A model generated the notes under the pieces. It did not search any database. It had not been told where the DNA came from and was given only the letters and a program-made list of their open reading frames with translations. Source: an uncultured Porphyromonadaceae bacterium (GTDB lineage Bacteria > Bacteroidota > Bacteroidia > Bacteroidales > Muribaculaceae). From it: 64,000 nucleotides of DNA. Positions 18,589 through 51,039 of this stretch are shown here, in pieces. Positions within the stretch are counted from its first letter, which is position 1. The number at the start of each line of letters is the position of its first letter. Position numbers and translations under genes: made by a program. Location of the stretch: NCBI GenBank assembly GCA_947175265.1, contig CAMWMD010000008.1, forward strand, positions 1-64,000, in the 5' to 3' direction.

Positions 18589-18950
18589 AAGATCATAAAG
18601 TTTATAATGGCCGGCACGTGCCTGCCTCTCATTTTTAACGCTCCAAATGCCCTCACTGTTCTCAAATCACTGATATTTCATGTTGCCTCTTATAGCTTTT
18701 TCAGTTAAGATGCTTATAAGTTTGGCAGGATAACCCTACTCCTTGGTTTCCTGTCCCTATCTTTGTGAATCAATTTTATTTAGGTGGTTTTATAAATCCT
18801 TTTTATACCTCACGGTAAACATCCATAAGGGATAGTAATAACCGAGTCAACTTAGAGTAGGGTTAACAACTGCTAATAGTTAACCAAAATCAGAAAATTA
18901 TACAGTTAGCCCTTTCCGGTTATTTGTTTTAAGGATTGAATGAAAAAGGT
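18589..18950. other. Intergenic region with inverted repeat GGTTAAC...GTTAACC
   Basis: This 360-bp AT-rich stretch separates the divergent acylase and HAD genes. No gene or RNA is recognised. GGTTAAC (18861-18867) and GTTAACC (18879-18885) form a 7-bp inverted repeat 66 bp upstream of the HAD -7 element, which could be an operator. No TAnnTTTG element is visible on the minus strand for the acylase gene. Confidence 0.4.
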
Positions 18951-18958
18951 TAATTTTG
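18951..18958 (+). promoter_or_regulatory. Bacteroidetes -7 promoter element TAATTTTG
   Basis: TAATTTTG lies 35 bp before the ATG at 18994. A TTTG at 18923-18926 is a possible -33 element with a long 24-bp spacer. Because the element overlaps an in-frame upstream ATG (18940), the later start is preferred for the HAD gene. Confidence 0.5.
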
Positions 18959-18993
18959 TAACTAAGGCCGTTTATATAAAAATCTTGAATATT

Positions 18994-19632
18994 ATGAAGG
19001 ATTACGATGTTTATCTGTTTGATTTTGATTATACGCTTGCTGATTCTTCCCGAGGCATTGTAGGTTGTTTCAGGGAGGTGCTTGAAGGAGCAGGATATCT
19101 TGGTATAAGTGATGACACTATAAAACGTACTATAGGACTGACCTTGGAAGAGGCATTTTCAGGTATGACTGGTATCACTGACAGGAGTGTCTTGGCCGTC
19201 TGGCGAAAGGAATATGTTAAGGTTGCCGACCGGATTATGAACTCTTCAACCTTCCTGTTTGAGGAGGTTCCCGAATTGTTGGACGCTCTTCGGAGAAGGG
19301 GTAGTAAAATTGGTATTATTTCTACAAAATACCGATATAGGATAGAAGATTTCCTGTTACGTCATTTTACGGAACTCCCCGTAGACATTATAATAGGAGG
19401 GGAGGACGTGAAGGATGCAAAACCCTCTCCGGAAGGTATTGGGAAAGCCATATACAGGCTTGGCGCGAGCAAAGAAAGTGTTCTTTATTGTGGCGACAGC
19501 ACGGTAGATGCGGCTTCGGCAATGAATGCAGGGGTAGATTTTGCCGGAGTCCTGCATGGAATCACTGTCCGGGAAGAGTTGCAAGTCTATCCCAACGTCG
19601 GAATAATAGGAAATCTGCTTGAACTGTTATAA
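18994..19632 (+). CDS. HAD family hydrolase (phosphoglycolate phosphatase-like)
   Basis: The 212-residue protein has HAD motif I DFDYTLADS (nucleophile Asp and general acid Asp two residues on), motif II in GIISTKYR, the motif III Lys in DAKPSP and motif IV GDSTVDAASAMNAG. A helical cap lies between motifs I and II (about residues 20-80), as in subfamily IA phosphatases. It dephosphorylates a small cytoplasmic substrate that cannot be named from sequence. Motif I has Tyr where Gly is usual (DFDYT versus DxDGT). It converges on the restriction gene with only 6 bp between the stops, so it marks the left border of the defence operon. Confidence 0.85.
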   Translation: MKDYDVYLFDFDYTLADSSRGIVGCFREVLEGAGYLGISDDTIKRTIGLTLEEAFSGMTGITDRSVLAVWRKEYVKVADRIMNSSTFLFEEVPELLDALRRRGSKIGIISTKYRYRIEDFLLRHFTELPVDIIIGGEDVKDAKPSPEGIGKAIYRLGASKESVLYCGDSTVDAASAMNAGVDFAGVLHGITVREELQVYPNVGIIGNLLELL

Positions 19633-19638
19633 GTCCAA

Positions 19639-22359
19639 TCAGGTAAAATTAATTTTATATTTAAGTTTTGCCTGTTTTAGAATGTAATCAAATGAGTAAC
19701 TACGCTCTACAATAGTATGAGGAATTAGGATGTATTTCCAGGGTTTGCCACCATTTTGGGCGATAAACTCTGTGGCACGACGGCAGAACTCGCGAGCGGC
19801 TTCTGCCTTTGAAAGAACATCAGCGTCATTTAGATCCTTTTCCGCTTTCGTCTCGCACATATAGATGGCATCGGTAGTTTCTACTATGAAGTCCGGCTCG
19901 TACTTCTTCGCGCCACTCGACCAGTAGATGTTGAACTGATTGGGTACTGGGCGAATCCATTTGAGGACTTCGTTGTTGGTTTCTAGGATGAAGGCGAAAT
20001 CAAGCTCCGTAGAACTGTCGAATCGGTATTTGGTATAGTAGGATTTCTTAAAGCCTACATATACAAATTTCACGACTGCGGATTTTTGAGCCGGCACAGG
20101 TTCGTGAAAATCCAATGTACCCAAATTATTGACAATTATTGGTTGGTCAAGAATTTTTGAGAATGGTAGCATTTTGTTGATTTTGAACTCTCCCGGAATA
20201 ATTCGGTAGTGTTCTTTCATCTGCTTATATATATTGTCAGCGAGGCTTTGCTTGAATGTGTGAACTCGCTCGTTCAGATCGTCGTCGGTTATGCCGGGCG
20301 CATTTTTGCGGATAGCATTTACAGCTTGGCCGACAATTTTATACAGTAGGTCGGAAATCTCGTCATAATCAACGTCATCAAAGTCTATAAGACACGCGAT
20401 GAGCTGTTCAACAGCCGGGCGCTTTGAACTTCCGGATTTTCCGGCTATCACTTCAAACTCAGTAGAGTCGTGGAGTCCTTGCCGGATAATTTCTCGATGC
20501 AATTCATCGAGATTATAGCCCTTTGTAGTATCGAGGTCGAAGTCCTCAAATACAGCCTTTACATTTTGTTGTTCAACGACAATGCGCGGAATTTCAATAA
20601 CATTATTCTTGTAATCCTCTACGACGATATTTATTATTTCGTCGACCTGGGCTATCTGCTCGGCTGTATCTTGCTCCGCAAAAAGAGAATCCTTGATACT
20701 CTCCTTGATGGTTTCAATAGCCTTTTCGCGGAGTTTTTGCTTAACCTCTTTCTTTTGGAGGTCTCCAAAAGAGGCTACACCCTCAGCTGCAATATTGGAG
20801 ATGGCGGATTTGACAGCCTTACCTACTTGAGTAACATATTGTTTCGACTTCTCCGATATTTCTCCTTTGACCTTTTCGATTTGCTTCTGAAGCTTCTGCC
20901 CGGTAGAGGTCGGAGTGGTTTCCACATGACCACCCTGTTCACGCTCGTCGCGATCTTCAAGTTCGATAAAAGATACTCGTTTGAGAAGTGAATTACCCTT
21001 GTTTGCCTCATCAATAACTTTCTGGAAGTTGTCGTGAGCGATAACTGTTAAAGTATCAACATCCTTATTACCTGTCCGCTGCCCTCCGTATGGCAAGCGC
21101 AGACCACGTCCGATAGTCTGCTCAATGAGAATAGCAGCATTTGAGGCTCTAAGTGGAATAATCGTGTAAAGATTATTCACATCCCAGCCCTCTTTAAGCA
21201 TATTGACGTGTACGACAATTTCTATCTCGTTATCGGGTGACTCAAGAGCTACAAACTGACGCTCAATATCTTCATCTTTTTTCGAGGAACTATCAATACG
21301 AAGTACTTTACCCTTATAAGCACTGTGATATATTAAATCGCTTTGCAATTTTTCTTCGACCTCTTTTGCGTGGTTTATATCTCGGCAAGCAACGAGAATG
21401 AATGGTTTAACAACTGGCAAACCATTCTGCTTGGCATACATCTCAATAGCAAGCCTGGTCCGCTCATGTACTGTAATTCCATCTTCAAGTTTGATAATTT
21501 CAATTTCCTCGGGAGTGAAATTATCTTTGTTGAAATTACGGGCTTTTGCAATCGCCGGATTTTTGACATATAATCCATCGTCGAGTGCTTCGGCGAGATT
21601 ATATTCAAAAACGATATTCTTAAAGGCTTTCCCTTTTTCATCGAAAGGTGTAGCCGTCATTTCAAAACCAAGAATAGGGCGAAGTTCATTGATTGCTTTT
21701 TTTGAAGCGTCTCCGTGGTAGCGGTGTGCTTCGTCCATAAGAATAACAAGATCAGGAAGCGAAGCGAGGTAATCGAAATATGACTGACCGAGATATTCGG
21801 ACAAGCGACGCATACGCGGTAATCCCTTCTTGCTCTCTTTGCAGTCCTTGTTGAACTTCGAGATATTGAAGATATTGATTTCAAGGTCGGAGAAAAGAGA
21901 GCCTATCCGCTCCTGATAGTTTTCCCCGGTAACGATTCTTGGAGGTTTCCCGACAAACTCACTTATCCCTTTGAAAACATATTTAGAGTACGATTCATCA
22001 CCAAAGTCCTTCATCAACTTCTCGTATAGTGTTAGGTTAGGCGCAAGTACGAAGAAGTGTTTTATACCTTTTTTGAGATAGAGATATGCGATTATTGCAC
22101 CCATTAATCTGGTTTTTCCTATACCGGTGGCTATGGAAAACGCGAGCGAAGGGAAATCACGGTCAAAGCCTTTGACAGATGGCACGATAGACTTTAACTT
22201 TGCAAGTTCATCTTTGATAAACATTTCGAGCATATCTGCATCCATAGGCGGTTTCTGCAACGAAAGTTTATCAGTCAGCCCGGCTGTAAGTTCCAATGCT
22301 TTTGCAAGAGGCTTACGAAGCGATAGGCGTTGACGTATGTAGTTAACTTGTGAATCCAT
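19639..22359 (-). CDS. res: Type III-like restriction subunit Res (helicase plus PD-(D/E)XK nuclease)
   Basis: The 906-residue protein has SF2 helicase motifs: ATGIGKTRLMGAI (motif I, about residue 73), DEAHRYHG (motif II, about 210), and QTIGRGLRLPYGG (motif VI, about 413). A long helical middle region follows. The C-terminal domain contains PDFIVETTDAIYMCETKAEKD (about 832-852), which fits a PD-...-ExK nuclease site. In type III systems Res translocates or slides ATP-dependently and cuts when two unmethylated sites are engaged, working with Mod. It is the last gene of the seven-gene operon. Its ATG overlaps the preceding stop by one base (TAATG). Two other genes separate it from Mod, which is unusual for type III. 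Confidence 0.88.
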   Translation of the reverse strand: MDSQVNYIRQRLSLRKPLAKALELTAGLTDKLSLQKPPMDADMLEMFIKDELAKLKSIVPSVKGFDRDFPSLAFSIATGIGKTRLMGAIIAYLYLKKGIKHFFVLAPNLTLYEKLMKDFGDESYSKYVFKGISEFVGKPPRIVTGENYQERIGSLFSDLEINIFNISKFNKDCKESKKGLPRMRRLSEYLGQSYFDYLASLPDLVILMDEAHRYHGDASKKAINELRPILGFEMTATPFDEKGKAFKNIVFEYNLAEALDDGLYVKNPAIAKARNFNKDNFTPEEIEIIKLEDGITVHERTRLAIEMYAKQNGLPVVKPFILVACRDINHAKEVEEKLQSDLIYHSAYKGKVLRIDSSSKKDEDIERQFVALESPDNEIEIVVHVNMLKEGWDVNNLYTIIPLRASNAAILIEQTIGRGLRLPYGGQRTGNKDVDTLTVIAHDNFQKVIDEANKGNSLLKRVSFIELEDRDEREQGGHVETTPTSTGQKLQKQIEKVKGEISEKSKQYVTQVGKAVKSAISNIAAEGVASFGDLQKKEVKQKLREKAIETIKESIKDSLFAEQDTAEQIAQVDEIINIVVEDYKNNVIEIPRIVVEQQNVKAVFEDFDLDTTKGYNLDELHREIIRQGLHDSTEFEVIAGKSGSSKRPAVEQLIACLIDFDDVDYDEISDLLYKIVGQAVNAIRKNAPGITDDDLNERVHTFKQSLADNIYKQMKEHYRIIPGEFKINKMLPFSKILDQPIIVNNLGTLDFHEPVPAQKSAVVKFVYVGFKKSYYTKYRFDSSTELDFAFILETNNEVLKWIRPVPNQFNIYWSSGAKKYEPDFIVETTDAIYMCETKAEKDLNDADVLSKAEAAREFCRRATEFIAQNGGKPWKYILIPHTIVERSYSFDYILKQAKLKYKINFT

Positions 22360-22955
22360 TACTCAAAACACTTTATAGATTTATCATCTCGTATTTCTAT
22401 TTCGTTTGAAGCGGCGAATAAGATCTTATGTTTCTTTTTGAGGCGTTTGTATTCTGGAGGCATACCAAATATAGTATCATTAAATGATACCTTAATCCTG
22501 GGGAATGATACCACACCATAAACCTTATGGGAAGAAATAATATTCTTTCTTCGAAAGATATTAGTCGTAGAGATAATTTGTTCGATAACATCCTCCTTAT
22601 AGCAGGAGATATTCTTGGGTTTACAGTCCTTGATTTCAAACATGGCTACCCATGAATCATCATGGGTTTTAGAGGGGAAGATACAGCCTTCGCAATGTCT
22701 TATATCTTTTCCCTGACTATCCTTAAACTGATGGTCGTCAAATATATTAAAATCAAGATTTAGATGAGAGGGATTCTTAATTCTAACGCAGTCCATGTTC
22801 TTTAGAGGATTATCAGGCAACGTGGGTAGGGTATTATGAACCTCCACACCTCGCGCTTTTTGCGTCCTTTCAGAGAAATCCGCAATGTAAAGAGTATCCA
22901 CGTTCCTTGTAGTTATGTAGGAATTGGGATAGTGCTGCCGAATTTTACTCCTCAT
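22359..22955 (-). CDS. Accessory protein with ExK nuclease-like motif, partner of the AAA ATPase
   Basis: The 198-residue protein has no family I can name. A CEGCIFP segment (Glu89) followed by WVAMFEIKD (Glu107, Lys109) fits the spacing of a PD-(D/E)XK-type metal site, where an acidic residue precedes a hydrophobic beta strand ending ExK. Two closely spaced Cys (88, 91) flank Glu89. No membrane segment or signal is seen. Its start lies 11 bp inside the AAA ATPase gene and its stop overlaps the res start by one base, so all three are translated together. It may be the effector nuclease for the ATPase; this is inference from motif and position. Confidence 0.55.
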   Translation of the reverse strand: MRSKIRQHYPNSYITTRNVDTLYIADFSERTQKARGVEVHNTLPTLPDNPLKNMDCVRIKNPSHLNLDFNIFDDHQFKDSQGKDIRHCEGCIFPSKTHDDSWVAMFEIKDCKPKNISCYKEDVIEQIISTTNIFRRKNIISSHKVYGVVSFPRIKVSFNDTIFGMPPEYKRLKKKHKILFAASNEIEIRDDKSIKCFE

Positions 22956-24249
22956 CTTCGTAATAATTTAACATTGAGAGGTATTCTTTGGAATTTTCTT
23001 TATAGGCCTGATTGAGATAATTGTCTTCGATGATTCCGTCTTCGTCTTGAATGCGCCTGATTCCCCCATAATGAATCTCATAAATTGATACATCCTGAGG
23101 ATTCACCCATGAATTAAAAGAAGGGAGAGCTATCGCTTCATCTGAAGGCATATTATTGCCAACTAATCCTCCCATCATACAGTTGTTAAGGGCAAACAGA
23201 ATGAATGGACTGTGAGTTGTCAGTATCAATTGATGGGCTTGGCCTGAAGTGTTAATGGTCTCCAACATGTAGTATATCAGCTCCTGCTGGGTCTTTGGAA
23301 ATAGATTAAGCTCTGGCTCCTCAATTATTACTTGAGAGTAATGGTAGTCACTGTAATAACCAAGAATATTTGCCATTTGCTCCTGTATGCTCATCAGTGT
23401 TTTGTTAAATTCATCCGGATTTTGAAGTAGACGTAAAGAAGATGTCATATCATCAATCATTGACTTTAATTGCATCATTTTAGATTTAATCTCCTCCGTT
23501 GTGTCTTGTGACTCACTTTTAATATACTTAAGCTTTTCTTCAAGATCAATAATCTCGAATGGAGTCTTGGTTCTTTTGGATCTATATATGCCAATCATTA
23601 TATAGTTGAACACAACGAGCAAAGGAATACTTGATCTCAGACCACTTGAGGCATGGTTTAACTTTATGTTCCGGTCATGGTCTATTTCAACCTGATCCGC
23701 ATCCGTTTCCTTGTCATAGTAGTATGAAATGTCTCCTAATCCGGATATGGGCATAGGGAAAGAGTTGGTTTGTGTCAATTCCTTCTTTGCCATAAACCAA
23801 TCATACATGAAACTTAATATGTTATCTCTTGTTTCGTTGTACTTCCCGAGACCCTGGAGGGTAACGAAATTACGCTCGGCCGGAATATAGGATATCTTCC
23901 TGTTTCTGAAAACAAGACCTCCCTTTAAATGATAATCAACTCTATTTTTAGATGTATCTTTCCATTTCCACTTAAAATCTAATTTACATATATCGCTTTC
24001 ATATTGAATCTCTGACGAATCCGAGAAATATGATTCCTCCAAATTGTGGAATGAAATCAATTCCTCAAAAAAGTTAGGTCTATTTGAGGTATGAAGAATG
24101 ACATTCTTTTCATACCATGAACAAAAGCTTACAATTTTGGCGATTGTACTTTTGCCACTGCTTTGCGGACCCATGAAAATATTGATCTTATTAAGATCAA
24201 ACGATACTTCCTTTATAGGTCCTATGTTTTTTATTGTTATATGTGTCAT
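22945..24249 (-). CDS. AAA-type ATPase (OLD/SMC-ABC-like), defence accessory
   Basis: The 434-residue protein begins like SMC/ABC ATPases: MTHITIKNIGPIKEVSF, then Walker A GPQSSGKST (residues 27-35). An ABC-signature-like NHASSGLRS lies near 200, a coiled-coil segment follows (about 240-300, EEKLKYIKSESQDT), then Walker B VIIEEPELNLFP near 318 and LTTHSPFIL near 350. This is the AAA_15/AAA_21 layout found in OLD, Gabija GajA, Septu PtuA and PARIS AriA, but no TOPRIM follows in the same chain. It starts 8 bp after the Mod stop and overlaps the ExK protein gene. It probably senses or drives a nuclease partner. Confidence 0.8.
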   Translation of the reverse strand: MTHITIKNIGPIKEVSFDLNKINIFMGPQSSGKSTIAKIVSFCSWYEKNVILHTSNRPNFFEELISFHNLEESYFSDSSEIQYESDICKLDFKWKWKDTSKNRVDYHLKGGLVFRNRKISYIPAERNFVTLQGLGKYNETRDNILSFMYDWFMAKKELTQTNSFPMPISGLGDISYYYDKETDADQVEIDHDRNIKLNHASSGLRSSIPLLVVFNYIMIGIYRSKRTKTPFEIIDLEEKLKYIKSESQDTTEEIKSKMMQLKSMIDDMTSSLRLLQNPDEFNKTLMSIQEQMANILGYYSDYHYSQVIIEEPELNLFPKTQQELIYYMLETINTSGQAHQLILTTHSPFILFALNNCMMGGLVGNNMPSDEAIALPSFNSWVNPQDVSIYEIHYGGIRRIQDEDGIIEDNYLNQAYKENSKEYLSMLNYYEDEE

Positions 24250-24257
24250 ATTTTGTT

Positions 24258-25928
24258 TTAATCAAATAACGAGGGTACAGACGAATATGTTGTTTCTCCT
24301 CTTACGTTGGATTCATCCAATGGAAGTTCTTCTTCCTCTTCATCATCCTTGATGTCAGGCATAGATATGATGTTGAGCGAGTAATCGTCACGGTCAAACT
24401 CGCAGGTGTCAAGAAGAACTTTGGGGATCTTCTTAATGGTTATATTTGAGTACTTGTTACGGCACTCAGGCTGGAATTTGGTGCAGCATATAAGCAATGA
24501 TTCATCTTCGCCCAACTGATCGTGAATGGTTTCGAGCATTTCAGCGGTAATGAGTTGGGTGGTTGTGAAGATGAAGTCGTGTTCAGAACTGCGCCCTTGT
24601 TTCCAATAGACTTCTGCGTCGGGAGAATAAGTGAAGCCCTGATGCTTTGCCATAGCAGCAGCAAGCATATCAGCATTGTAATCCTTATTGATTACAAGAT
24701 TACCGTACTTGTCATGATTGAGAAGGCTTGGTGCAAGTTCATAGAACTTGAAGCCACCTCCACCTTGCCAATTTACAGACTTTGATATACCGCCTTGCTC
24801 ACCCTCAATTACTTTTTTTAATCTTGGGTAGCAAACGGTATAAGCGTGGTTTCCTAATTCTACACCTATCCACCGACGGTTCATCTTTTGTGCAACAGCG
24901 GATGTTGTACCACTTCCCAAAAAACTATCAAGAACAATATCACCAGGGTTAGATGCTAAAGTGATTACACGCTCAATCAAACGTTCAGGCTTAGGTGTAT
25001 CGAAAGACTCAGGCAAATTTAGAGCTTTAATTTCTCCATTAGCCTCTCTTGTTGTACCAACCTCTTCGGCAAACCATAGAGTTTCAGGAACTCGACCATG
25101 TTGGTCTTTTAAGTATATCTTACGAATAATTCTTGTCTCATCTTCTGAGAACTTTATTTTGCCGACAGCAAGTTCAGCCTCAAAGGTTTCCTTACTAAAC
25201 CTCCAACCTTTTTCAGGATGATGGATAATTTTCCCGGATGGGGTTGTTATATCATACATAAGATTGGGTCGCACCAAACTATTTCTTACATCACCAGCCC
25301 TCCATGGTCCATTGGGATCATTATCAGGATTAGAATAATTAATATTGTGTTTTGCTGTCCTTTCGAGAGAATTTAAGGAGAATTTCTCTGTTTTTCTATA
25401 GCAGAATGTATAATTATGATGCAAGGAAAACTTTCCGGGGTATCCCTTACTCTGAACCGCATGTTGCCATATAGTAGAAGCAACGAAGTTGCTTCTGCCA
25501 AATATTTCATCACACATTACTCGGAAATAATGAGCCTCACAATCATCCAGAGTGACCCAAAGACTTCCATCTTCCGACAATAAATTGTAAAGAATAATAA
25601 TACGACTACGCATGAGAGATAGCCAAATCGAGTGCTCTAATGAATCATTGTATTGCTCAAACGCATGTCCTGTATTATATGGTGGGTCAATATAAATACA
25701 CTTTACTTGCCCGGCAAAGTCCTGTTCAAGTGCACGAAGCGCGAGAAGATTGTCGCCATGAATGAGCATATTGCCCTGCCACGGCTTACCATTGGGGAGA
25801 GTCCCAGTTTCGACCTCCCCAAAACTATATTCCGGGGTATCAATCAGCAGACGGGGTTCTATGGGAAGCGGTTCTTCCTCCTTGCCAATCCACGTCAGTT
25901 CCAGTTTATTTATCTTGTTCTGTGCCAT
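24258..25928 (-). CDS. mod: Site-specific DNA methyltransferase Mod (beta-class, type III-like)
   Basis: From the ATG at 25928 the protein has 556 residues. The catalytic motif DPPYNTG (about residue 86) precedes the SAM-binding motif DSFLGSGTTSAVAQ (about 340), the order of beta-class N6-adenine or N4-cytosine methylases such as type III Mod. The region between (about 150-300) is the target-recognition part, with YDITTPSGKIIHHPEKGWR typical of this group. The C-terminus is acidic (DDEEEEELPLDE). It protects host DNA and gives the restriction complex its specificity. An upstream ATG at 25955 is possible. It overlaps the HEPN-like gene by 23 bp. Confidence 0.9.
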   Translation of the reverse strand: MAQNKINKLELTWIGKEEEPLPIEPRLLIDTPEYSFGEVETGTLPNGKPWQGNMLIHGDNLLALRALEQDFAGQVKCIYIDPPYNTGHAFEQYNDSLEHSIWLSLMRSRIIILYNLLSEDGSLWVTLDDCEAHYFRVMCDEIFGRSNFVASTIWQHAVQSKGYPGKFSLHHNYTFCYRKTEKFSLNSLERTAKHNINYSNPDNDPNGPWRAGDVRNSLVRPNLMYDITTPSGKIIHHPEKGWRFSKETFEAELAVGKIKFSEDETRIIRKIYLKDQHGRVPETLWFAEEVGTTREANGEIKALNLPESFDTPKPERLIERVITLASNPGDIVLDSFLGSGTTSAVAQKMNRRWIGVELGNHAYTVCYPRLKKVIEGEQGGISKSVNWQGGGGFKFYELAPSLLNHDKYGNLVINKDYNADMLAAAMAKHQGFTYSPDAEVYWKQGRSSEHDFIFTTTQLITAEMLETIHDQLGEDESLLICCTKFQPECRNKYSNITIKKIPKVLLDTCEFDRDDYSLNIISMPDIKDDEEEEELPLDESNVRGETTYSSVPSLFD

Positions 25929-26505
25929 TTTCTGAAATTTTTGATATAAACGCATTTAATGAATACATCAGTGCAAACCACGATATAAAATGATTAAATG
26001 CTTGTTGTGCATTCCTACTAACTTGAAATCGAAACAAGTTCAAAGCATCGAGATTATCATCAAAGTGAACTGAAACATTTCTCTCATTTTGTATTATAGA
26101 CTGCAGTTTATCATCGTCTGCAAACTTTATAAATTCACTTTTTATTGAATCTAATTCAAACCGATAACTTCCATCAATTTCTATTGAAATTAAATCAAAT
26201 AACGACTGTTTCCTACCACCGTTCTTACTCTTGAATCCTATTATCTTTTTTATTGATTCATTTATAAGAATATATATATTCCCAGTGATGAAAATTTCTT
26301 CCCATCTTTGATCACAAAGACAATAATTCTTAATAAGAGAACAAGCGTTACATATCATACATAATATGTAGAGATGACAATTTTCTAATTGAGACAAGGA
26401 CTTTTTATGATTATAGGAATTCATTTTTAAGCGAAAATCGTCTAACCCAGCCTCGGCAGCTCGAAACATTTTTAAATGCTGTTTAACGTGAGAATCAGGT
26501 GTCAT
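25906..26505 (-). CDS. HEPN-like protein (candidate RNase) in defence operon
   Basis: The 199-residue, mostly helical protein carries ERNVSVHFDD, with Arg142-Asn143 and His147. This fits the R(N)x3-4H catalytic motif of HEPN ribonucleases and is similar to the RNxxxHY of many minimal HEPN domains. A preceding helix with CSLIKNYC fits the same fold. No signal peptide or clear membrane helix is present, although the C-terminal helix (about 168-187) is hydrophobic. It lies 1 bp downstream of the membrane-protein gene and overlaps mod. HEPN proteins in defence loci often cut RNA on infection. The assignment rests on the motif and helix content only. Confidence 0.55.
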   Translation of the reverse strand: MTPDSHVKQHLKMFRAAEAGLDDFRLKMNSYNHKKSLSQLENCHLYILCMICNACSLIKNYCLCDQRWEEIFITGNIYILINESIKKIIGFKSKNGGRKQSLFDLISIEIDGSYRFELDSIKSEFIKFADDDKLQSIIQNERNVSVHFDDNLDALNLFRFQVSRNAQQAFNHFISWFALMYSLNAFISKISENGTEQDK

Positions 26506-26506
26506 A

Positions 26507-27121
26507 TTACTTATGGTATTTATTTATCAATTCAAGCATTTTTTCCTTCTTCGATTTAATTTTTGTTTCATCGCATTCACTGAGAGTATCTAAAATTTCA
26601 TCTCGCTCAGTATCGGAAATATATTGCTTATGCTTAATAACCTCAATAAGTCCATCTATGCCATGTTCAATATCATAATAATCTGGACTTGGTTTCTTTC
26701 TTACTCCAAACCATATCAAGTTTCTAAATCTATTAAGATAATATTCATCTGCTGTATAGAACGAATGCATGGGGTGATAGGGCGTTATTTGTGCAAATAA
26801 GACATCCCATGAAGAGTCACAACACGAACAATTCACTTTTTCTGAAAGTCTATCCAATACCTCCTTCTTAGTCATATAATCGCGTCGAAGAACTCTACGG
26901 AAATAAATTTTAGAAATTGCAGTATATACCATCAATACAATAATCAACCATCCTAAACCAACATTAAGATTGATAGTATTCCAAAAAATGGACATACCTT
27001 TTAGCCAGTCTATATTTTTTATATATGAATATATCCCTGTAATTATAGACCAACATAGAAGTATGGCTAATCCTATAAAAAGCTGTTTTGCTTCTGCTGT
27101 CTTATACCATTTTTCTTTCAT
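26507..27121 (-). CDS. Two-helix membrane protein of unknown function in defence operon
   Basis: From the ATG at 27121 the product has 204 residues. Two transmembrane helices (about 14-33, LFIGLAILLCWSIITGIYSY, and 52-70, VGLGWLIIVLMVYTAIS) are followed by a soluble domain of about 130 residues with a CSCC cluster and a Lys-rich end. No known family is recognised. The ATG overlaps the helicase stop as ATGA, which supports this start; a further ATG at 27133 is possible. It is immediately followed (1 bp) by the HEPN-like gene, so the two may form a functional pair, for example a membrane sensor or anchor with an RNase. That pairing is inference. Confidence 0.6.
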   Translation of the reverse strand: MKEKWYKTAEAKQLFIGLAILLCWSIITGIYSYIKNIDWLKGMSIFWNTINLNVGLGWLIIVLMVYTAISKIYFRRVLRRDYMTKKEVLDRLSEKVNCSCCDSSWDVLFAQITPYHPMHSFYTADEYYLNRFRNLIWFGVRKKPSPDYYDIEHGIDGLIEVIKHKQYISDTERDEILDTLSECDETKIKSKKEKMLELINKYHK

Positions 27122-30033
27122 ACTATCTTCCAATGAAAAGTTATTAACTTGGTTAGCTCAGTCTTTTGGGCGAGCATGGCTTCTACTTTTGAGAGTAGTT
27201 CTTCTTTCTTAGAATCCACATCGTCCTGTGCCTGATAAAGATTGAGCCGTTTTTCACTACGCCGCTTTTCAAGGTCTTTGATGAGGCGTTGCAGTCGTAC
27301 TTTTTCATCGAGTCGCGAAGTCTTCTTGCTCTCGCTTTTGCGGAGTTTGATTTCTGCGTCAAGGTCACGTAACTCTTTTTCAAGACCGGCTTTCACGTCC
27401 TCCGACCAGTTGTCGAGTTTCTCCATTTCTTCCTCAAAGAAAGAATTATTACGCTCGGCATTAGCAGCAGTTATTTCCACACGTTGGGCGGTGATTGCAT
27501 CAATAAGAGCATCGTATGTGTTTTTTGAAAGCTCAACATTTAGCGATTCTTCCACGCCTGAAAGACTTAGCATATACTCGGCGATGTCAGGAGGGACGAT
27601 TTCTCCTTTATCCGTAATACAGGCGTGGAGAAGCATATCCTCTTTCTCGAATGAATCTATGGTAAGTTGCTCGACGGTGAGCCAGCCCGACTGACCGACA
27701 AGTTGCTTAATGAAAGCAACGTTGAGCGGTGAGTTGGTGTAGTCAAGAGTTATTTCCGAGATCGGTACAGGAGAGGCTTTAAGACCGGTAAGCATATATT
27801 GAGCGAGAGGATCGCCAATGCGGTAAGGTCTTACACCATCGGCTAATTTAGCGGTACGCCTATTCTCGGAGCTTACCATCATATATTCGCCAGGGAAACG
27901 ACGGTACCAACTCACAGCCCCGTTATCAACAAACGGATGTACGGTAAAAGAGTGGTCTGCGTCGTTGAAGTCGGCATAGTCAGCGAAATAACTTCTGGTA
28001 AGTTGCCATAATGTTTGCTCAAACTGATTGAGGTTATCACGTGTTTCGGCAAGGTCGCTGCGAAGTTTCTGCTTTACGGATTCGTCAAAGTTTTCTAACA
28101 GAGTTGTTCGTGCTTTCAGCATCTTGTCGGAAATCTGATCTTGCAGCTCCTTTTGAAGTGCGTCAAAAGCTTCCTTAATTTCTTTTGGAGAACGGCAAAG
28201 TTGATAAATTTGCGCTATACGCTTTTCAAAATCAACACCATTTCCGATTGCACCGAGAACTTCGTCGGAAGCACCAAAAACGCCGTTGAAAAGCTGAAAC
28301 TTCTGGTCGAGCAATTCATATACGCGGACATCGGCGGCATTGGCTTTATTAAGAAAGTTGATAACAACAACATCGAAGTTCTGACCATAGCGGTGGCAAC
28401 GTCCGATACGTTGCTCTATGCGTTGTGGATTCCACGGCATATCATAGTTGACCACGAGCGAACAGAATTGAAGATTGATACCTTCGGCAGCAGCCTCAGT
28501 AGCAATCATAATGGTAGCTTCATCGCGAAAGTAGTCAACAAGAGCTGCACGTTTATCGGCAGTAGCCGAGCCTGTAATCTTCGACGTACCTTTGTGCTTC
28601 TCTTTCCAAGCCTTGTATATGGCGGTAGATTGTTTATCGGAATTTGAACCGTTGAAAAGCACAACTTTTCCCTTATAGCCTCTTTTTTCAAGAAGATCAA
28701 AAAGGAAGTCCTGTGTGCGACGTGATTCAGTAAAGATAAGGGCCTTGTTGGGGGCACCGAGTTCTTCAAGTTGTGCGAAGCCTTGATTTAAGCCCTCAAA
28801 TAGCTGCTCTGCTTTTGAGTTGCGCTTAATCTTGAAGGCGAGGTCGCGGAATTTTTCAAGGTCTTTAATTTCCGCTTTCACTCGCTCGATGTCTTCGGGC
28901 GAAAGCATTTCTTCCTCGTCCGGCTCGTCCTCGTCTTCTTCATCATCAAGCCATTCTTCAGTTTCACTCTCGTAGTCCTCGTAGTCATACTTGAAAAGTT
29001 CATCATCGGACTGCTCAACGCCCTGGCGTTTGAGTTTAGCTTCCAACTTTTCAATAAGGGCGCATAGAGTCCCGTATATAGCATGGGTTGAAGATGCAAG
29101 AAGTTTGCGGAGGATTAGCGTCATAAGCTGACGCTGACTGTTCGGCAGCGCATAAAGGCGAGGGCGTTGCAGATACTCCGAAACGAGGTCATAAAGTTCC
29201 TGCTCCTGTTTGGTCGGGAAAAATTCTTGCAGTATGGCGATACGTTTTGTGTATCGCACATATTCGAGCACTTGACGGCGAAGTGTACGCTTGCAAAGCG
29301 GAGCAAGCCGGCGGCGCAGGTTAGCATAATCTGTTTCGTCGAGATTGCGATTATACTGCATCTTGAAACTTTTGAGATCTCCGAAAGCATAATCATCGAT
29401 TATGGTAGTCAGACCGTAAAGTTCAAGGATAGAATTTTGGAGAGGTGTAGCCGTCAATAGAATTTTCTTGCGGTCGGCAAGAGCTTTCTTTATCGTGTTG
29501 GAGATTTTGTTGGTTGGCTTATATACATTACGTAGGCGGTGAGCCTCGTCAATAACCACCAAATCCCAATTAGTCTGCTTGAGATATGGGGCCTTTGTCT
29601 TTGCGAATTGATACGAGCAGATGACAATTTCCTCACAGTTGAAAGGATTGAGATTGCCATCCTCAATGTAGCGATTGAAAGTCTTTGCTTCAAGAATACG
29701 CGACGGCAGAAAGAACTTCTCTTGAAGTTCAGCCGCCCACTGCTTGCGCAGGTTTGCCGGAGCGATGATTAGCAGGTGGCGGCGGTGTTCAGCCCAAAAC
29801 TGAGAAAGAATAATACCGGCTTCAATGGTTTTACCAAGGCCCACCTCGTCGGCGAGAATCGCGCCCTTGGAAAGAGGAGACTTGAAAGCAAAGAGAGCTG
29901 CATCGATCTGATGTGGAGTTAGATCAACCTGTGCATCCTGCAATGAAGCTGTGAGCTTACCGAGACTGTCGGAAGGCAGACTCCGTGTAAGCCAATAGGC
30001 AAAGTATTTCTGTTGCGCTGCTGTCAGCTTCAT
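27118..30033 (-). CDS. SNF2/RapA-type DEAD-like helicase, first gene of defence operon
   Basis: The 971-residue protein has an SF2 SNF2-like core: DEVGLGKTIEAG (motif I, about residue 58), VVIDEAHRLRN (motif II, about 157), LLTATPLQN (motif III, about 190), and EGINLQFCSLVVNYDMPWNP with QRIGRCHRYGQ (motifs V and VI, about 520-550). An acidic insert (EEWLDDEEDEDEPDEEE, about 360) splits the two RecA lobes, and residues 850-960 form a coiled coil. Such translocases occur in DISARM (DrmD) and next to type III-like Mod/Res pairs. The start at 30033 is chosen over 30051, which adds only MFFLFN. A -7 promoter element lies about 150 bp upstream. Confidence 0.87.
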   Translation of the reverse strand: MKLTAAQQKYFAYWLTRSLPSDSLGKLTASLQDAQVDLTPHQIDAALFAFKSPLSKGAILADEVGLGKTIEAGIILSQFWAEHRRHLLIIAPANLRKQWAAELQEKFFLPSRILEAKTFNRYIEDGNLNPFNCEEIVICSYQFAKTKAPYLKQTNWDLVVIDEAHRLRNVYKPTNKISNTIKKALADRKKILLTATPLQNSILELYGLTTIIDDYAFGDLKSFKMQYNRNLDETDYANLRRRLAPLCKRTLRRQVLEYVRYTKRIAILQEFFPTKQEQELYDLVSEYLQRPRLYALPNSQRQLMTLILRKLLASSTHAIYGTLCALIEKLEAKLKRQGVEQSDDELFKYDYEDYESETEEWLDDEEDEDEPDEEEMLSPEDIERVKAEIKDLEKFRDLAFKIKRNSKAEQLFEGLNQGFAQLEELGAPNKALIFTESRRTQDFLFDLLEKRGYKGKVVLFNGSNSDKQSTAIYKAWKEKHKGTSKITGSATADKRAALVDYFRDEATIMIATEAAAEGINLQFCSLVVNYDMPWNPQRIEQRIGRCHRYGQNFDVVVINFLNKANAADVRVYELLDQKFQLFNGVFGASDEVLGAIGNGVDFEKRIAQIYQLCRSPKEIKEAFDALQKELQDQISDKMLKARTTLLENFDESVKQKLRSDLAETRDNLNQFEQTLWQLTRSYFADYADFNDADHSFTVHPFVDNGAVSWYRRFPGEYMMVSSENRRTAKLADGVRPYRIGDPLAQYMLTGLKASPVPISEITLDYTNSPLNVAFIKQLVGQSGWLTVEQLTIDSFEKEDMLLHACITDKGEIVPPDIAEYMLSLSGVEESLNVELSKNTYDALIDAITAQRVEITAANAERNNSFFEEEMEKLDNWSEDVKAGLEKELRDLDAEIKLRKSESKKTSRLDEKVRLQRLIKDLEKRRSEKRLNLYQAQDDVDSKKEELLSKVEAMLAQKTELTKLITFHWKIV

Positions 30034-30048
30034 ATTAAATAAAAAGAA

Positions 30049-30100
30049 CACCCATGTAGCATCTGAAGGCCGACCAAAGCCTGTAACGACTACAAGGATG
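30049..30100 (-). promoter_or_regulatory. Hairpin in the leader of the defence operon
   Basis: On the minus strand CATCCTTGTAG (30100-30090) pairs with CTACATGGGTG (30059-30049) over 11 positions with one T:T mismatch and one wobble. An inner AGGC/GCCT pairing is also possible. It ends 16 bp before the helicase start codon, within the predicted ~140-nt leader. There is no U tract directly after the stem that would make it a clear terminator. It may affect translation or be an attenuator. Confidence 0.4.
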
Positions 30101-30180
30101 TTCCCAGAGTTTTTCGGCTCTCGCAGTATGTCTTTTTGTTTACTGAATGGTCATTTTCAGATATTCGTAACCTTATAATG

Positions 30181-30188
30181 CAAAGTTA
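30181..30188 (-). promoter_or_regulatory. Bacteroidetes -7 element for the defence operon
   Basis: Read on the minus strand this is TAACTTTG, matching TAnnTTTG, and no other such element lies between it and the helicase gene. No good -33 TTTG is found at 18-20 bp. The rest of the gap (30189-30417) is AT-rich and shows no gene or RNA. Confidence 0.5.
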
Positions 30189-30417
30189 TAAATTATTTCT
30201 GGAACATACATTCTAACTGTCAGGTTTTATCAGTTCTTTGATGTAAATGTTCCCTGTATTTAATTGATGGCCTCTATATCTTTTTTAATATTTGAGTAGA
30301 AGTAAGTGACGGCTGTCGGAATATACCACCTACCTAAATATAAGTTAGTCTCCTCAGATGGCAAGTTGCAGTATAGTCCGGAATTTGATTCCACATTTAT
30401 GACAAGGGTCTGTATGC

Positions 30418-31572
30418 TTATTGCTCGTAGAAACTTTTCAGATTATCCAGAGGGAAGTGCAGCAGTCTGTCGGCAATAGCCTCCATTGTGCCCTGTTTCT
30501 CGTAAGGATTGGCAGCGGTTGCGGCTATTGTCCTCATCTCAGGAGAAAGCACTTTGTCAAGACCTTCGGCGATGGCTTCTTCTGTAACGCCGCAATTGAT
30601 GACGGATTCCCCTTGGGCACGCCCTTTCTGACGGTCGCCTACGTTTAGGGTCGGTATGCCGAAAGAGGGGGCCTCGATCAGTCCGCTTGAGGAATTTCCT
30701 ACCGCGGCGGCACTGTTGGCAAGCACAGAGTAGTAGCGGCGTCGGCCTAATGATGCCACAGCCTTTACACTTCCCTCATTCTTCCGAGCCCACTCTTTTA
30801 TCAATTCAGCCACCCGCCTCCCCCCCGTGTCTGAATTGGGGAGGGTGAACAGCACTTTCCAACCTCTATCCACTATCGATGACAGAGCGTTGAGGAAGGC
30901 CTTGGTCTGGCGTTCCTCTTCACCCGGCTGAGTCGTGACGGGATGGAACGTGGCCACCACATACCTGCTTCCGAGGTTAAACCCGATAAAATCCTCCACC
31001 TCCTCAAGAGGGAGTAAGACCTCCTTCCGGATATTCTCAGCCCCCGGGGCACCTACCCAGAATACCCTGTCGGGGTTTTCCCCCATCTTCACGATACGCC
31101 GGGCATAAAGTTCGGTTGAGGCGAAATGGAGATACGACAGTTTTGTGATGGCATGTCGTATGCAGTCATCATACGCGCCCTCCGTAGTCTCTCCCCCATG
31201 CAGATGGGCAACGGGGATACGGAAAATCAGTGCTGCGGAGGCTGCCGCGAGCATCTCATAACGGTCGCCGAGTATGACCACAAGATCGGGGCGCAACTGA
31301 TCAAAAGCATCAGCCAGGCCAATCTGTGTCAGCCCCATGGATTTCACAGTAGAGGAGGGGGTATCGGCCGACAGGAGAGATTCTACACGACGGTCGACGG
31401 AAAAACCGTCAGCCTCTATCTCGTTTACCGTCATACCGTATTCGGGAGAGAGGTGCATGTTGGTGGCTATAATTTGGATATCAGCCTCAGATGAATCGGC
31501 TATACGCCTCATGAGGGGAGCCATTATTCCATAGTCGGCACGTGTGCCGGTCACAAAACATATTTTTCGCAT
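30418..31572 (-). CDS. neuC: UDP-N-acetylglucosamine 2-epimerase, hydrolysing (NeuC-type)
   Basis: The 384-residue protein begins MRKICFVTGTRADYGIMAPL, the GTRADYG motif of hydrolysing UDP-GlcNAc 2-epimerases. It also has VILGDRYEMLAAASA, HLHGGETTEGAYDD-IRHAITK and VGNSSSGLIEAPSFGIPTLNVGDRQKGR. It converts UDP-GlcNAc to ManNAc and UDP, the first step of sialic acid synthesis; close relatives act on other UDP-sugars in legionaminate synthesis. neuB and neuD lie 2.5-4 kb away on the same strand, separated by a plus-strand sigma-factor cluster. The later ATG (31572) fits the conserved N-terminus better than 31593. Confidence 0.88.
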   Translation of the reverse strand: MRKICFVTGTRADYGIMAPLMRRIADSSEADIQIIATNMHLSPEYGMTVNEIEADGFSVDRRVESLLSADTPSSTVKSMGLTQIGLADAFDQLRPDLVVILGDRYEMLAAASAALIFRIPVAHLHGGETTEGAYDDCIRHAITKLSYLHFASTELYARRIVKMGENPDRVFWVGAPGAENIRKEVLLPLEEVEDFIGFNLGSRYVVATFHPVTTQPGEEERQTKAFLNALSSIVDRGWKVLFTLPNSDTGGRRVAELIKEWARKNEGSVKAVASLGRRRYYSVLANSAAAVGNSSSGLIEAPSFGIPTLNVGDRQKGRAQGESVINCGVTEEAIAEGLDKVLSPEMRTIAATAANPYEKQGTMEAIADRLLHFPLDNLKSFYEQ

Positions 31573-48839: not shown

Positions 48840-50033
48840 ATGGCAGAGAAAAGAGATTATTATGACGTGCTCGGCGTTTCGAAAAGCGCGAGTGCCGACG
48901 AAATAAAGAAGGCCTATCGAAAGATGGCCATAAAGTATCACCCCGATAAGAATCCGGGGGATAAGGAGGCTGAGGAGAAGTTTAAGGAGGCGGCCGAGGC
49001 TTACGATGTCCTGAGCGATGCCGACAAGAGGGCGAAGTATGACCAGTTTGGCCATAACATGGGTCCTCAGGGATTCGGCGGAGCCGGAGGCGGCGGTTTC
49101 TACAGTGGTGGCGGAATGTCGATGGAAGATATTTTCGCTCACTTCGGCGATATTTTCGGCGACTTCGGAGGCGGAAGCCATTTCAGCAGTGGTGGCGGAC
49201 GTGCCCGCACGCGTCAGCATGTGAACAAGGGTACTGATCTCCGCATCACTGTTAAGGTAAGCCTCAAGGATATAATGAATGGTGTGGATAAGAAGCTGAA
49301 ACTTCCGCGTCAGGTGGCTTGTTCACATTGCAAGGGTACAGGTGCCAAGGATGGTACCGCATTCCATACATGTCAGCGTTGCGGCGGCACAGGTTACATC
49401 AACCGTGTTCAGCAGACCATGTTCGGAGCAATGCAGAGTGAGGCTGTTTGTCCGGAATGTAACGGTGAGGGTAAGGTGATAACCGAGCCTTGTTCTTATT
49501 GCCACGGCACAGGCGTGGAGAAGAAGGAGGAGATCGTAAGTTTCCACATCCCCGCAGGTGTTGAGGACGGTATGACGCTCACATTGCGCGGCCAGGGTAA
49601 CGCACCGCGTCACGGTGGCGTGAACGGCGACCTTCTCATCGTCATTCAGGAGGAGAAGAATCCCGATCTTATCCGTGATGGTAACGATCTTATCTACAAC
49701 CTTATGCTTGATTTCCCGACAGCCGCGCTCGGTGGCTCTGCCGAGGTTCCTACGGTAGATGGTAAAGCGCGCCTGAAGATAGCAGCAGGTACACAGCCGG
49801 GTAAGGTGCTCCGTCTGCGTGGCAAGGGTTTACCCCAGATGAACAGCAGCATAAAGGGTGATCTGCTTGTGAACGTTATGGTTTACGTCCCTGAAGCATT
49901 GACAGATGCCGAGAAGTCGGCGATAGAAAGTCTGAAAGATGCTCCGAATGTAGTTCCGACTGAATCCACGGCCAAGAGAATCTTCTCACGACTCCGCCAC
50001 ATTTTCAACAAGGAGAACCGCGGCGTAGAATAA
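48840..50033 (+). CDS. dnaJ: Molecular chaperone DnaJ
   Basis: The 397-residue co-chaperone has the J-domain with [10 protein letters not shown] (His-Pro-Asp, about 33-35), a Gly/Phe-rich linker (about 72-130, [13 protein letters not shown]), and four zinc-finger repeats CxxCxGxG ([32 protein letters not shown]). The C-terminal substrate domain follows. It stimulates DnaK ATPase and delivers clients. The last codons and stop are copied in a 22-bp tandem repeat just downstream. Confidence 0.95.
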
Positions 50034-50054
50034 GGAGAATCGCAGCGTAGAATA
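50011..50054 (+). repeat. 22-bp imperfect tandem duplication over the dnaJ stop codon
   Basis: AGGAGAACCGCGGCGTAGAATA (50011-50032) is followed directly by a copy with two differences (50033-50054). The first copy includes the last codons of dnaJ (ENRGVE, stop). The second lies after the stop. It is a local slippage or duplication trace. Confidence 0.8.
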
Positions 50055-50088
50055 ATAATAGAAAAATAGGAGATATAAAAATAAGCAA

Positions 50089-50130
50089 CTGACGCCCCGC
50101 CACTCCCGAAGTAGCAGGGCGTCAATTTTA
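50089..50130 (+). terminator. Intrinsic terminator after dnaJ
   Basis: TGACGCCC (50090-50097) pairs with GGGCGTCA (50117-50124), followed by ATTTTATAT. It ends the grpE-dnaJ unit. The remaining 150 bp to the higB promoter are AT-rich and show no gene. Confidence 0.8.
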
Positions 50131-50274
50131 TATACGATGATATACGCTGAAACCCCTTGTCTTTTTAATGTAGGGCATAAAGGAAGAAAGGAGGAGGGAA
50201 TATTAGTAGGATAGATTGGAATTTTGAGACTGTAATTTATCTTTTAGATATTTTCAGAATTGGAATTTTATTTG

Positions 50275-50282
50275 TAATTTTG
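50275..50282 (+). promoter_or_regulatory. Bacteroidetes -7 promoter element TAATTTTG for higBA
   Basis: TAATTTTG matches TAnnTTTG and lies 25 bp before the higB ATG. The -33 element is unclear; TTG at 50260 gives only a 12-bp spacer. HigA-type antitoxins usually repress at such sites. Confidence 0.5.
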
Positions 50283-50307
50283 CAATAACAGTAATCTACA
50301 AAACACT

Positions 50308-50601
50308 ATGAGAATTATAACTGAAGAGCCTCTTAAAAACTATATCGCCAGATTTCCGGATACTAAGGTTGCTTTACAGTGTTGGGTGAAGACAGTGAGA
50401 GAGGCACGGTGGGAGTGTTTTGCGGATATGAAGAAAAGTTTCAATAGTGTTGATAGTGTTGGTAACCAGCATTATGTGTTTAATATTCGGGGTAATAACC
50501 ATCGTCTCGTCGTAGTTGTCAAGTTTACAATCAAGTGGGTGTATATTCGATTTATTGGGACTCATGAGGAATATGACAAGATAGATTGTTCCACAATATA
50601 A
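50308..50601 (+). CDS. higB: HigB-type mRNA interferase toxin
   Basis: The 97-residue RelE-fold protein has the HigB_toxin pattern: a helical start (EEPLKNYIARFPD), WVKTVREARWECFADMKKSFNSVD, a beta sheet with HYVFNIRGNNHRLVVVVKF, and the ending IRFIGTHEEYDKID. It cuts ribosome-bound mRNA. It precedes the antitoxin, the order typical of higBA, with 13 bp between. Its AT-rich sequence stands out from dnaJ upstream, which suggests acquisition. Confidence 0.87.
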   Translation: MRIITEEPLKNYIARFPDTKVALQCWVKTVREARWECFADMKKSFNSVDSVGNQHYVFNIRGNNHRLVVVVKFTIKWVYIRFIGTHEEYDKIDCSTI

Positions 50602-50614
50602 TAAGAAGTAGAAT

Positions 50615-51020: not shown

Positions 51021-51039
51021 TTGGAATATTTCAATTTTA

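What the first reader, a model, noticed from the sequence alone, without database searches (positions are those of the whole stretch)
19639..30033. Seven-gene composite defence operon: SNF2 helicase, TM protein, HEPN-like, Mod, AAA ATPase, ExK protein, Res
The seven genes run on one strand with overlaps or gaps of at most 8 bp, so they form one transcript. Seen: SNF2 motifs, beta-class methylase motifs DPPY and FLGSGTT, Res helicase plus ExK nuclease, an SMC-like ATPase and an RNxxxH motif. Known: type III systems have adjacent mod and res; DISARM pairs a SNF2 helicase (DrmD) with a methylase but needs drmA/drmB/drmC, which are absent. Here two cargo slots (helicase-mod, mod-res) each hold a two-gene module. 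Inference: a helicase-extended type III restriction system carrying swappable abortive or nuclease modules. The block is visibly more AT-rich than its flanks, which fits horizontal transfer.
Basis: partly seen in the sequence, partly recalled or inferred. Interest (0 to 1): 0.82.

Follow-up and report, generated by a model that had tools for sequence, protein, structure and literature searches.

The report
Type III restriction operon with cargo slots
This gut-bacterium operon is a known kind of DNA-cutting phage defence with an extra helicase, and comparison with its relatives shows that the two gaps between its three core genes hold interchangeable genes, most likely backup defences.

Summary
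Seven same-strand genes (19639-30051) form a packed block: SNF2-type helicase (Hel), TM protein, HEPN-like protein, type III Mod, AAA ATPase, ExK nuclease-like protein, Res. The frame is known: Hel is 46% identical over 986 aa to the helicase beside Eco86II, a characterised type III m4C system whose extra ATPase has no known function. It is not DISARM. Of 91 helicase loci, 60 have Hel-Mod-Res in order on one strand; without one duplicate, 38 of 59 carry genes of at least 100 aa in one or both gaps. In 8 same-family relatives with Hel 77-95% and Res 63-92% identical, neither slot holds any of the window's four cargo genes, and DNA homology breaks at the ends of Hel, Mod and Res. In three loci a 44-93 bp copy of the Hel 3' end lies between cargo genes, a likely scar of stepwise cargo gain. 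The slot-2 pair resembles PADLOC candidate PDC-M29, which elsewhere also sits in type I restriction operons. Embedding of defence genes in immune operons is already proposed in print, and mod-res inserts also occur without this helicase. Cargo function is inferred.

The parts
27118..30051 (-). Hel: SNF2/RapA-type helicase of the DrmD_b-like family, homologous to the extra ATPase of Eco86II (likely ATG start 30033)
   Evidence: PADLOC DrmD 3.7e-202, NCBIfam DISARM_DrmD_b 678 bits, below its 950 cutoff; 46% over 986 aa to the Eco86II helicase
26507..27133 (-). slot 1 cargo: TM protein, 2 weak hydrophobic segments near the N-terminus (ATG at 27121)
   Evidence: hydropathy; no family above cutoff; no homologue in 8 same-family relatives' slots
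25906..26505 (-). slot 1 cargo: HEPN-like protein with RNxxxH motif
   Evidence: motif RNVSVH; no family or PDB match; 1 weak match besides itself in 296 phylum genomes; structure model unusable
24258..25955 (-). Mod: type III beta-class DNA methyltransferase (likely ATG start 25928)
   Evidence: MTase_III 6.5e-179, N6_N4_Mtase 3.1e-46; DPPY and FLGSGTT
24944..25476 (-). variable region of Mod, presumed target-recognition domain (between motifs IV and I)
   Evidence: homology gap in blastn against 6 of 8 relatives: L184, L185, L187-L190; borders approximate
22945..24249 (-). slot 2 cargo: AAA/SMC-like ATPase, PDC-M29A-like
   Evidence: PDC-M29A 4.8e-58; AAA_15 6.6e-15; 44% homologue in the same slot in L035
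22359..22955 (-). slot 2 cargo: ExK nuclease-like partner, PDC-M29B-like
   Evidence: invariant E107-x-K109 and Q126 across 11 aligned proteins; PDC-M29B 2e-3; 29% homologue in L035
19639..22359 (-). Res: type III restriction subunit, SF2 motor plus PD-(D/E)xK
   Evidence: REase_III 2.9e-157; ResIII 1.7e-20; motifs
30181..30188 (-). Bacteroidales-type -7 promoter-like element upstream of Hel
   Evidence: TAACTTTG; consensus recalled, not tested; four further matches inside the operon
18669..30424 (.). segment without blastn counterpart in L193, where the flanking genes are 0.53 kb apart
   Evidence: blastn of the flanks

Best explanation
It is a helicase-extended type III restriction-modification operon of the Eco86II kind, whose two internal gene junctions act as cargo slots for exchangeable auxiliary defence genes. 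Shown by sequence: Hel, Mod and Res are the constant frame; both slots and a middle part of Mod vary between close relatives, with breaks at gene borders. Inferred: Mod methylates one strand at its site; Mod-Res cuts unmodified incoming DNA; Hel, a SNF2-type DNA motor, assists in an unknown step. The cargo (TM + HEPN-like; ATPase + ExK nuclease) is co-expressed by translational coupling and serves as a second layer that acts when restriction fails or is inhibited. Exchange probably runs by homologous recombination in the conserved gene ends, which leaves copies of the Hel tail. Likelihood: anatomy and exchangeability about 0.9; backup-layer role of the cargo about 0.45.
For: 60 of 91 helicase loci have Hel-Mod-Res in order on one strand; 20 of the other 31 are cut by contig ends, 4 have Mod and Res in another order or interrupted, 7 lack a pair. 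Counting only slot genes of at least 100 aa, leaving out pieces of frame genes and one duplicate locus: 38 of 59 with cargo, 21 without; slot 2 filled in 16. Slot genes: 77 same strand, 7 opposite; 157 of 201 gaps at most 30 bp. 8 of 8 same-family relatives keep Hel and Res but hold none of the window's cargo; L189 and L190 have Hel 94%, Res 93% and different slot contents. Homology breaks at gene ends. Hel-tail copies between cargo genes in L184, L190, L093. 14 of 19 cargo representatives scanned have a Pfam match above cutoff, many of them abortive-infection or toxin families. The PDC-M29 pair is portable: of 13 canonical loci none has this frame's Res or a high-scoring Hel, and 4 lie beside a type I HsdR gene. 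Cargo GC 0.30-0.37 against frame 0.41-0.46. Of 11 E. coli loci read, 9 have the frame: 4 without cargo, Eco86II among them, 5 with three different cargo sets.
Against: No test of phage protection, of cargo toxicity or of a trigger. In Eco86II the helicase was neither needed for methylation nor found in the active enzyme preparation (PMC8259958), so a shared mechanism is not shown. 8 of 18 other type III pairs have mod-res inserts too, so the slot is not a special property of this frame. In the less similar relatives homology also lapses inside Hel (about 28052-27757 in L189, L190, L033) and inside Res (L188, L033), so borders are cleanest only in the closest ones. HEPN-like and ExK assignments rest on short motifs; both structure predictions failed and a PDB profile search with the ExK family found nothing credible.
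Confidence: 0.6

Rival explanations
1. The cargo is independent defence or toxin-antitoxin genes that merely settle in an expressed, horizontally mobile restriction operon; they share its promoter but neither sense nor back up restriction.
For: The PDC-M29 pair occurs without this frame in 13 of 13 canonical loci; 4 of these lie beside a type I HsdR gene, and L147 lies beside an efflux operon. The same cargo family sits in either slot: AAA+DUF4276 in slot 1 (L034, L081, L091) and slot 2 (L186, L202); Abi_2 in slot 1 (L035) and slot 2 (L083). 21 of 59 frames persist without cargo of 100 aa or more.
Against: Strand bias 77 to 7, tight spacing and placement at gene borders point to selection for co-expression, though not for functional coupling. 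PrrC in a type I locus is a documented case of coupling (PMC12707154, passage).
Confidence: 0.35
2. All seven genes form one dedicated system with seven subunits.
For: Tight packing of all seven genes.
Against: 0 of 8 same-family relatives keep any of the four cargo genes while keeping Hel, Mod and Res; cargo-free frames are common, 21 of 59, and Eco86II methylates and cuts with no cargo in its operon (PMC8259958).
Confidence: 0.03
3. A degraded or variant DISARM locus.
For: Hel scores best with DrmD models.
Against: Hel is below the DrmD_b cutoff (678 of 950 bits), the methylase is type III Mod in one operon with Res, and no MZB (DUF1998, DrmB-type) domain was found in the whole genome.
Confidence: 0.02

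Closest known systems
Eco86II (E. coli NCTC86) and BspHIV: type III m4C systems with an extra helicase-like ATPase 5' of mod (PMC8259958)
   Same: Same gene order Hel-Mod-Res in the NCTC86 locus; Hel 46% identical over 986 aa; Mod matches my Mod profile (487 bits).
   Different: The NCTC86 locus has no cargo in either slot, a longer Mod (1040 aa), and a Res that my Res profile does not match. Whether the window Mod makes m4C or m6A is unknown.
Genes embedded in immune operons (Hma-embedded candidates HEC; PADLOC candidates PDC; preprint 10.1101/2024.01.29.577857)
   Same: Same principle; the window's ATPase is PDC-M29A-like, and relatives' cargo matches HEC-01, PDC-S13 and PDC-S04.
   Different: The preprint could not be read, so whether it treats this frame is unknown. 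Added here: border-exact exchange between close relatives, both slots, duplicated Hel tails.
PrrC inside the type I locus EcoprrI
   Same: A backup effector nested in a restriction operon (PMC12707154, passage).
   Different: One type I case; here many cargo families in two slots of a type III frame, with no trigger shown.
DISARM type I (DrmA, DrmB, DrmC, DrmD, DrmMI; list from PMC9252829, passage)
   Same: SNF2 helicase of the DrmD kind in one operon with a methylase gene.
   Different: No DrmA/DrmB/DrmC among the seven genes; Res present instead.

Membership tests
Type III restriction-modification | Mod: beta-class methylase with motif IV before motif I and TRD between | tested here: met
   DPPY at 90, FLGSGTT at 345; variable region about residues 160-337
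Type III restriction-modification | Res: SF2 motor plus C-terminal PD-(D/E)xK, in the same operon | tested here: met
   GIGKT, DEAH, PD..ETK; REase_III 2.9e-157
Type III restriction-modification | methylation of one strand and cleavage at head-to-head sites | not testable with these tools
   needs methylome sequencing and purified enzyme
Helicase-extended type III (Eco86II kind) | homologous helicase-like ATPase 5' of mod | tested here: met
   46% over 986 aa; order Hel-..-Mod-..-Res
Helicase-extended type III (Eco86II kind) | m4C specificity | not testable with these tools
   sequence does not decide m4C against m6A here
DISARM | drmA, drmB, drmC present | tested here: not met
   no such gene among the seven; MZB/DUF1998 of DrmB 0 matches in the genome; DrmA and DrmC were not searched genome-wide
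PDC-M29 (PADLOC candidate) | M29A ATPase | tested here: met
   4.8e-58, residues 1-428 on profile 1-405 of 410
PDC-M29 (PADLOC candidate) | M29B partner | tested here: inconclusive
   E 2e-3; conserved ExK and Q but 13-19% identity to 9 canonical partners
HEPN ribonuclease | R-x4-6-H motif in an all-helical fold | tested here: inconclusive
   RNVSVH present; no profile hit; model pLDDT 34.5

The most novel reading that the evidence does not exclude
The helicase-type III frame is a cargo platform: slot cassettes are gained and swapped by recombination at the conserved ends of Hel, Mod and Res, and the frame, through the otherwise unexplained helicase, acts as the common sensor or trigger for whatever effector sits in the slots.
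Probability: 0.2. Interest if true: 0.8.

Novelty: new variant of a known kind. Interest (0 to 1): 0.55.

Why it matters
It gives a natural series for testing whether genes nested in restriction operons are backups or passengers: near-identical frames with different cargo in one bacterial family, and in E. coli the characterised Eco86II frame without cargo beside frames with Abi+AIPR, DUF262/DUF1524 or AAA+S8 peptidase. It also offers a lead to the unexplained extra helicase of these type III systems, and a place to look for new defence genes.

Tried and rejected
Structure prediction of the HEPN-like protein and of ExK as single sequences: pLDDT 34.5 and 31.4, unusable, so no fold search was run. 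PDB sequence search: for the ExK family only five entries of one yeast factor at E 0.35-0.6, taken as chance; for the HEPN-like protein nothing. Viral contigs for the HEPN-like protein: no relative. Direct repeats over the inserted segment: no clear att- or target-site pair among the 20 of 29 families shown. Hel in phages: 1 of 50,697 records, partial, at E 1e-50. Near-identical operon on plasmids: no match; Hel relatives at E 1e-120 in 39 of 72,556 plasmid records, all under 60% identity. DISARM and one-system readings rejected (see rivals).

Rows dropped and weak points. Of 14 order-level regions fetched, 12 entered the comparison (L045 and L046 did not), and truncated hits L011, L014 and L016 were not extended. 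L112 and L115 gave no helicase ORF. One search's own tally (22 slot 1 only, 2 slot 2 only, 17 both, 19 neither) includes genes of 75-99 aa and pieces of broken Mod or Hel (for example L091, L119); one search is the mended count. The strand count (82 to 6) was biased, because loci with an opposite-strand gene over 200 aa inside had been broken off; one search repeats it without that rule (77 to 7). Hel-tail copies: L117 was dropped because its repeat also matches inside Mod and Res, L104 as a short internal match, and matches of 23-28 bp in L056 and L091 were ignored. The 91 loci are the best-scoring helicases found, not a random sample. ORFs come from a greedy first-start script, so slot contents are approximate. 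The control took 20 of the 44 matches listed.

Full report
What is there. The seven ORFs lie on the - strand as described. Hel is a DrmD-like SNF2/RapA-type helicase (PADLOC DrmD 3.7e-202; NCBIfam DISARM_DrmD_b 678 bits against a cutoff of 950), with RapA the best solved structure by sequence. Mod and Res are type III subunits (6.5e-179 and 2.9e-157) with intact motifs. The slot-2 ATPase matches PADLOC candidate PDC-M29A over nearly its whole length (4.8e-58); its partner has an invariant ExK and Q across 11 aligned proteins but only a weak PDC-M29B score (2e-3). The slot-1 pair (TM, HEPN-like) has no family above a cutoff.

Packing. Gaps are at most 8 bp; the TM gene begins with an ATGA overlap at the Hel stop, and the Res ATG overlaps the ExK stop by one base. 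A Bacteroidales-type -7 element lies upstream of Hel, with four more matches to the same pattern inside the operon (consensus recalled). The sigma-70-type scan gave 47 sites against 28.5 expected and is not informative here.

Relatives across bacteria. A helicase profile found relatives in many phyla; the best 80 of 559 were kept. With the window and 12 loci from the same order, 93 loci were examined and 91 had a callable helicase ORF. Of the 91, 60 have Hel, Mod, Res in that order on one strand. Of the other 31, 20 end within 5.5 kb downstream of the helicase, 4 have Mod and Res in another order or interrupted (L077, L092, L102, L122), and 7 lack a pair. With slot genes of at least 100 aa, pieces of frame genes left out and the duplicate L050 dropped: 59 frames, 22 with slot 1 only, 2 with slot 2 only, 14 with both, 21 with neither. 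Of 19 cargo representatives scanned, 14 have a Pfam match above cutoff: AIPR, AAA_15/SMC-like ATPases, AAA_21 with DUF4276, Schlafen AlbA_2, RhuM, Abi_2, Bro-N, HTH+IrrE, SIR2-like, DUF3800, ParA-like and Fic. Slot genes lie 77 on the frame strand and 7 opposite (60 loci); the first gene upstream of Hel is 36 same, 21 opposite, and the first downstream of Res 36 same, 17 opposite. Inside the operons 157 of 201 gaps are at most 30 bp. The same cargo family can sit in either slot. L035 has homologues of the window's slot-2 pair (44% and 29%) in the same slot, with unrelated slot-1 genes.

Close relatives. In the window's own family, 10 of 297 genomes (own included) have this helicase at E 1e-100 or better. 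Eight relatives with Hel 77-95% identical (L184-L190, L033) keep Hel, Mod and Res, with Res 63-92%, and none has a homologue of any of the window's four cargo proteins in its slots beyond 31-34-residue matches at the ATPase N-terminus. Their cargo is a Bro-N protein (L184, and by 88-96% identity L185 and L190), AAA+DUF4276 (L186), a weakly SIR2-like protein (L189; scanned in its counterpart L047, below cutoff), and proteins without a family. L189 and L190 share Hel 94%, Mod 87%, Res 93%; L189 has one gene in each slot, L190 two unrelated genes in slot 1 and none in slot 2. DNA homology to the window ends close to the Hel stop (27113-27125 in 8 of 8), resumes at the Mod start (25911-25937), lapses in the middle of Mod in 6 of 8 (about 25476-24944 in the nearest), ends near the Mod stop (24321-24369) and resumes at the Res start (22359-22370). 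In less similar relatives it also lapses inside Hel (L189, L190, L033) and inside Res (L188, L033). So there are three stretches that change beyond drift in the nearest relatives: slot 1, the middle of Mod, slot 2.

Scars of exchange. Whole Hel, Mod and Res genes were searched against the slot DNA of their own loci (89, 76 and 67 slot searches). Hel gives clear hits only with its extreme 3' end: 60 bp at 95% in L184, 44 bp at 95% in L190, 93 bp at 84% in L093, each just after the first cargo gene. An internal hit in L104 is short and repetitive, and L117 holds a dispersed repeat; both were set aside. L056 has a second Mod in slot 2, and L113 a 31 bp copy of its Mod start. The Hel-tail copies fit stepwise gain of cassettes by recombination in the Hel tail; this is inference from three loci.

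Frame history. Over 61 complete frames, distances of Mod and Res agree closely (r 0.93), Hel with Mod 0.46 and Hel with Res 0.59 (0 of 2000 permutations as high in each). L070 and L202 have Hel 75% identical with Mod at 24% and Res at 15%, so the helicase has changed Mod-Res partners too. Four more genomes of the class have a Res of this subfamily at E 1e-60; three could be read and all three have Hel upstream, the fourth is cut by its contig end.

Insertion. In L193, of the same genus, the genes that flank the block in the window lie 0.53 kb apart (window 18669-30424 has no counterpart), and in L196 and L197 they are neighbours; L195 has other genes at the site, and L194 lacks the left neighbour. 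The block, with the HAD gene beside it, is thus most likely an insertion. Cargo genes are the most AT-rich (GC 0.30-0.37) and the frame is intermediate (0.41-0.46).

Known counterparts. PMC8259958 (passages and section 17 read) reports Eco86II and BspHIV, type III m4C systems with a helicase-like ATPase 5' of mod, seen near mod and res in more than 500 genomes, function unknown, not needed for methylation and not found in the active Eco86II preparation. The matching locus in the NCTC86 genome has Hel 46% identical to the window's and no cargo; that it is the Eco86II locus rests on strain, gene order and the helicase. Of 11 E. coli loci read, 9 have Hel-Mod-Res: 4 without cargo, 3 with an Abi gene plus AIPR or a short gene, 1 with DUF262/DUF1524, 1 with AAA+S8 peptidase; 2 have IS elements and no Mod-Res annotated downstream. 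A distant search with one Hel touched 244 of 5426 E. coli genomes, one of them through RapA; 60 rows were seen. PMC12988326 (passages) describes PDC and HEC candidates as found by 'guilt-by-embedding', citing preprint 10.1101/2024.01.29.577857, which is not held. The window ATPase and some relatives' cargo fall in those candidate families. Paper searches on helicase-type III operons and nested genes gave no title or abstract opening that describes these slots; most listed papers were not opened, and the library lacks most subscription papers.

Control. Twenty loci with another type III Res family from the same order were fetched. Of 18 with both Mod and Res, 8 have a gene of at least 100 aa between them, and 6 have a different, more distant SNF2 helicase upstream, with DUF4391 in the two of these that were scanned. 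Inserts between mod and res are therefore a general habit of type III operons here, not a mark of this helicase; the figure for the present frame is 16 of 59.

Portability. PDC-M29A gives a match at E 1e-3 in 75 of 296 Bacteroidota-phylum genomes; 13 copies in 12 genomes score above 440 bits, one with an in-frame stop. All 13 were read: none lies by this frame's Res or a high-scoring Hel; L141 has a distant helicase (154 bits), and two have a weak Mod-like hit. Ten neighbours from 7 of these loci were scanned: L141, L143, L145 and L148 have a type I HsdR gene, L141 also a specificity subunit; L147 has an efflux operon. So the pair is portable between type I and type III restriction operons and other places. 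The window's genome has a second copy on contig C3 without Hel, Mod or Res hits in 15.5 kb (L152).

Mechanism. Shown: anatomy, exchangeability and border precision in the nearest relatives. Inferred from family knowledge: restriction by Mod-Res, membrane or RNase action of slot 1, nuclease action of slot 2. Most likely the cargo is a second layer co-expressed with restriction; the passenger reading is the main rival and sequence cannot decide between them.

Noticed in passing
G000:C11 (L229) and G000:C23 (L216): The same genome has two more type III systems: one with a distant SNF2 helicase, YhcG-like and DUF4391 genes before Mod-Res, and one plain Mod-Res.
   Followed up: partly
L224, L225, L229, L231, L233, L234: A second helicase-Mod-Res frame with a different SNF2 helicase (1066-1100 aa), with DUF4391 in the two scanned, also carries cargo such as Schlafen (L233).
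   Followed up: partly
L141, L143, L145, L148: PDC-M29 ATPase-nuclease pairs beside type I HsdR genes, so the same module rides in type I and type III operons.
   Followed up: partly
L152 (G000:C3): A second PDC-M29-like ATPase plus small ExK partner in the window's own genome, away from any Hel/Mod/Res hit.
   Followed up: partly
L070 and L202: Helicases 75% identical are paired with dissimilar Mod-Res genes (24% and 15%), so the helicase has changed partners.
   Followed up: no
L056:14277-18908: Two Mod genes with a cargo gene between them; ends similar, middle different.
   Followed up: no
L199, L201, L204, L205 upstream of Hel: A small HTH gene annotated mads1 (MAD1) precedes the helicase in these E. 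coli loci; no ORF of at least 80 aa on the operon strand lies between Hel and the next gene in the window.
   Followed up: no
window 50001-52000: A second dip in GC (0.438 against about 0.50) in the window.
   Followed up: no
window 18940-19632: A HAD-type phosphatase-like gene (named by eye) converges on Res 6 bp away and has no match at the corresponding site in L193, L196 and L197.
   Followed up: partly
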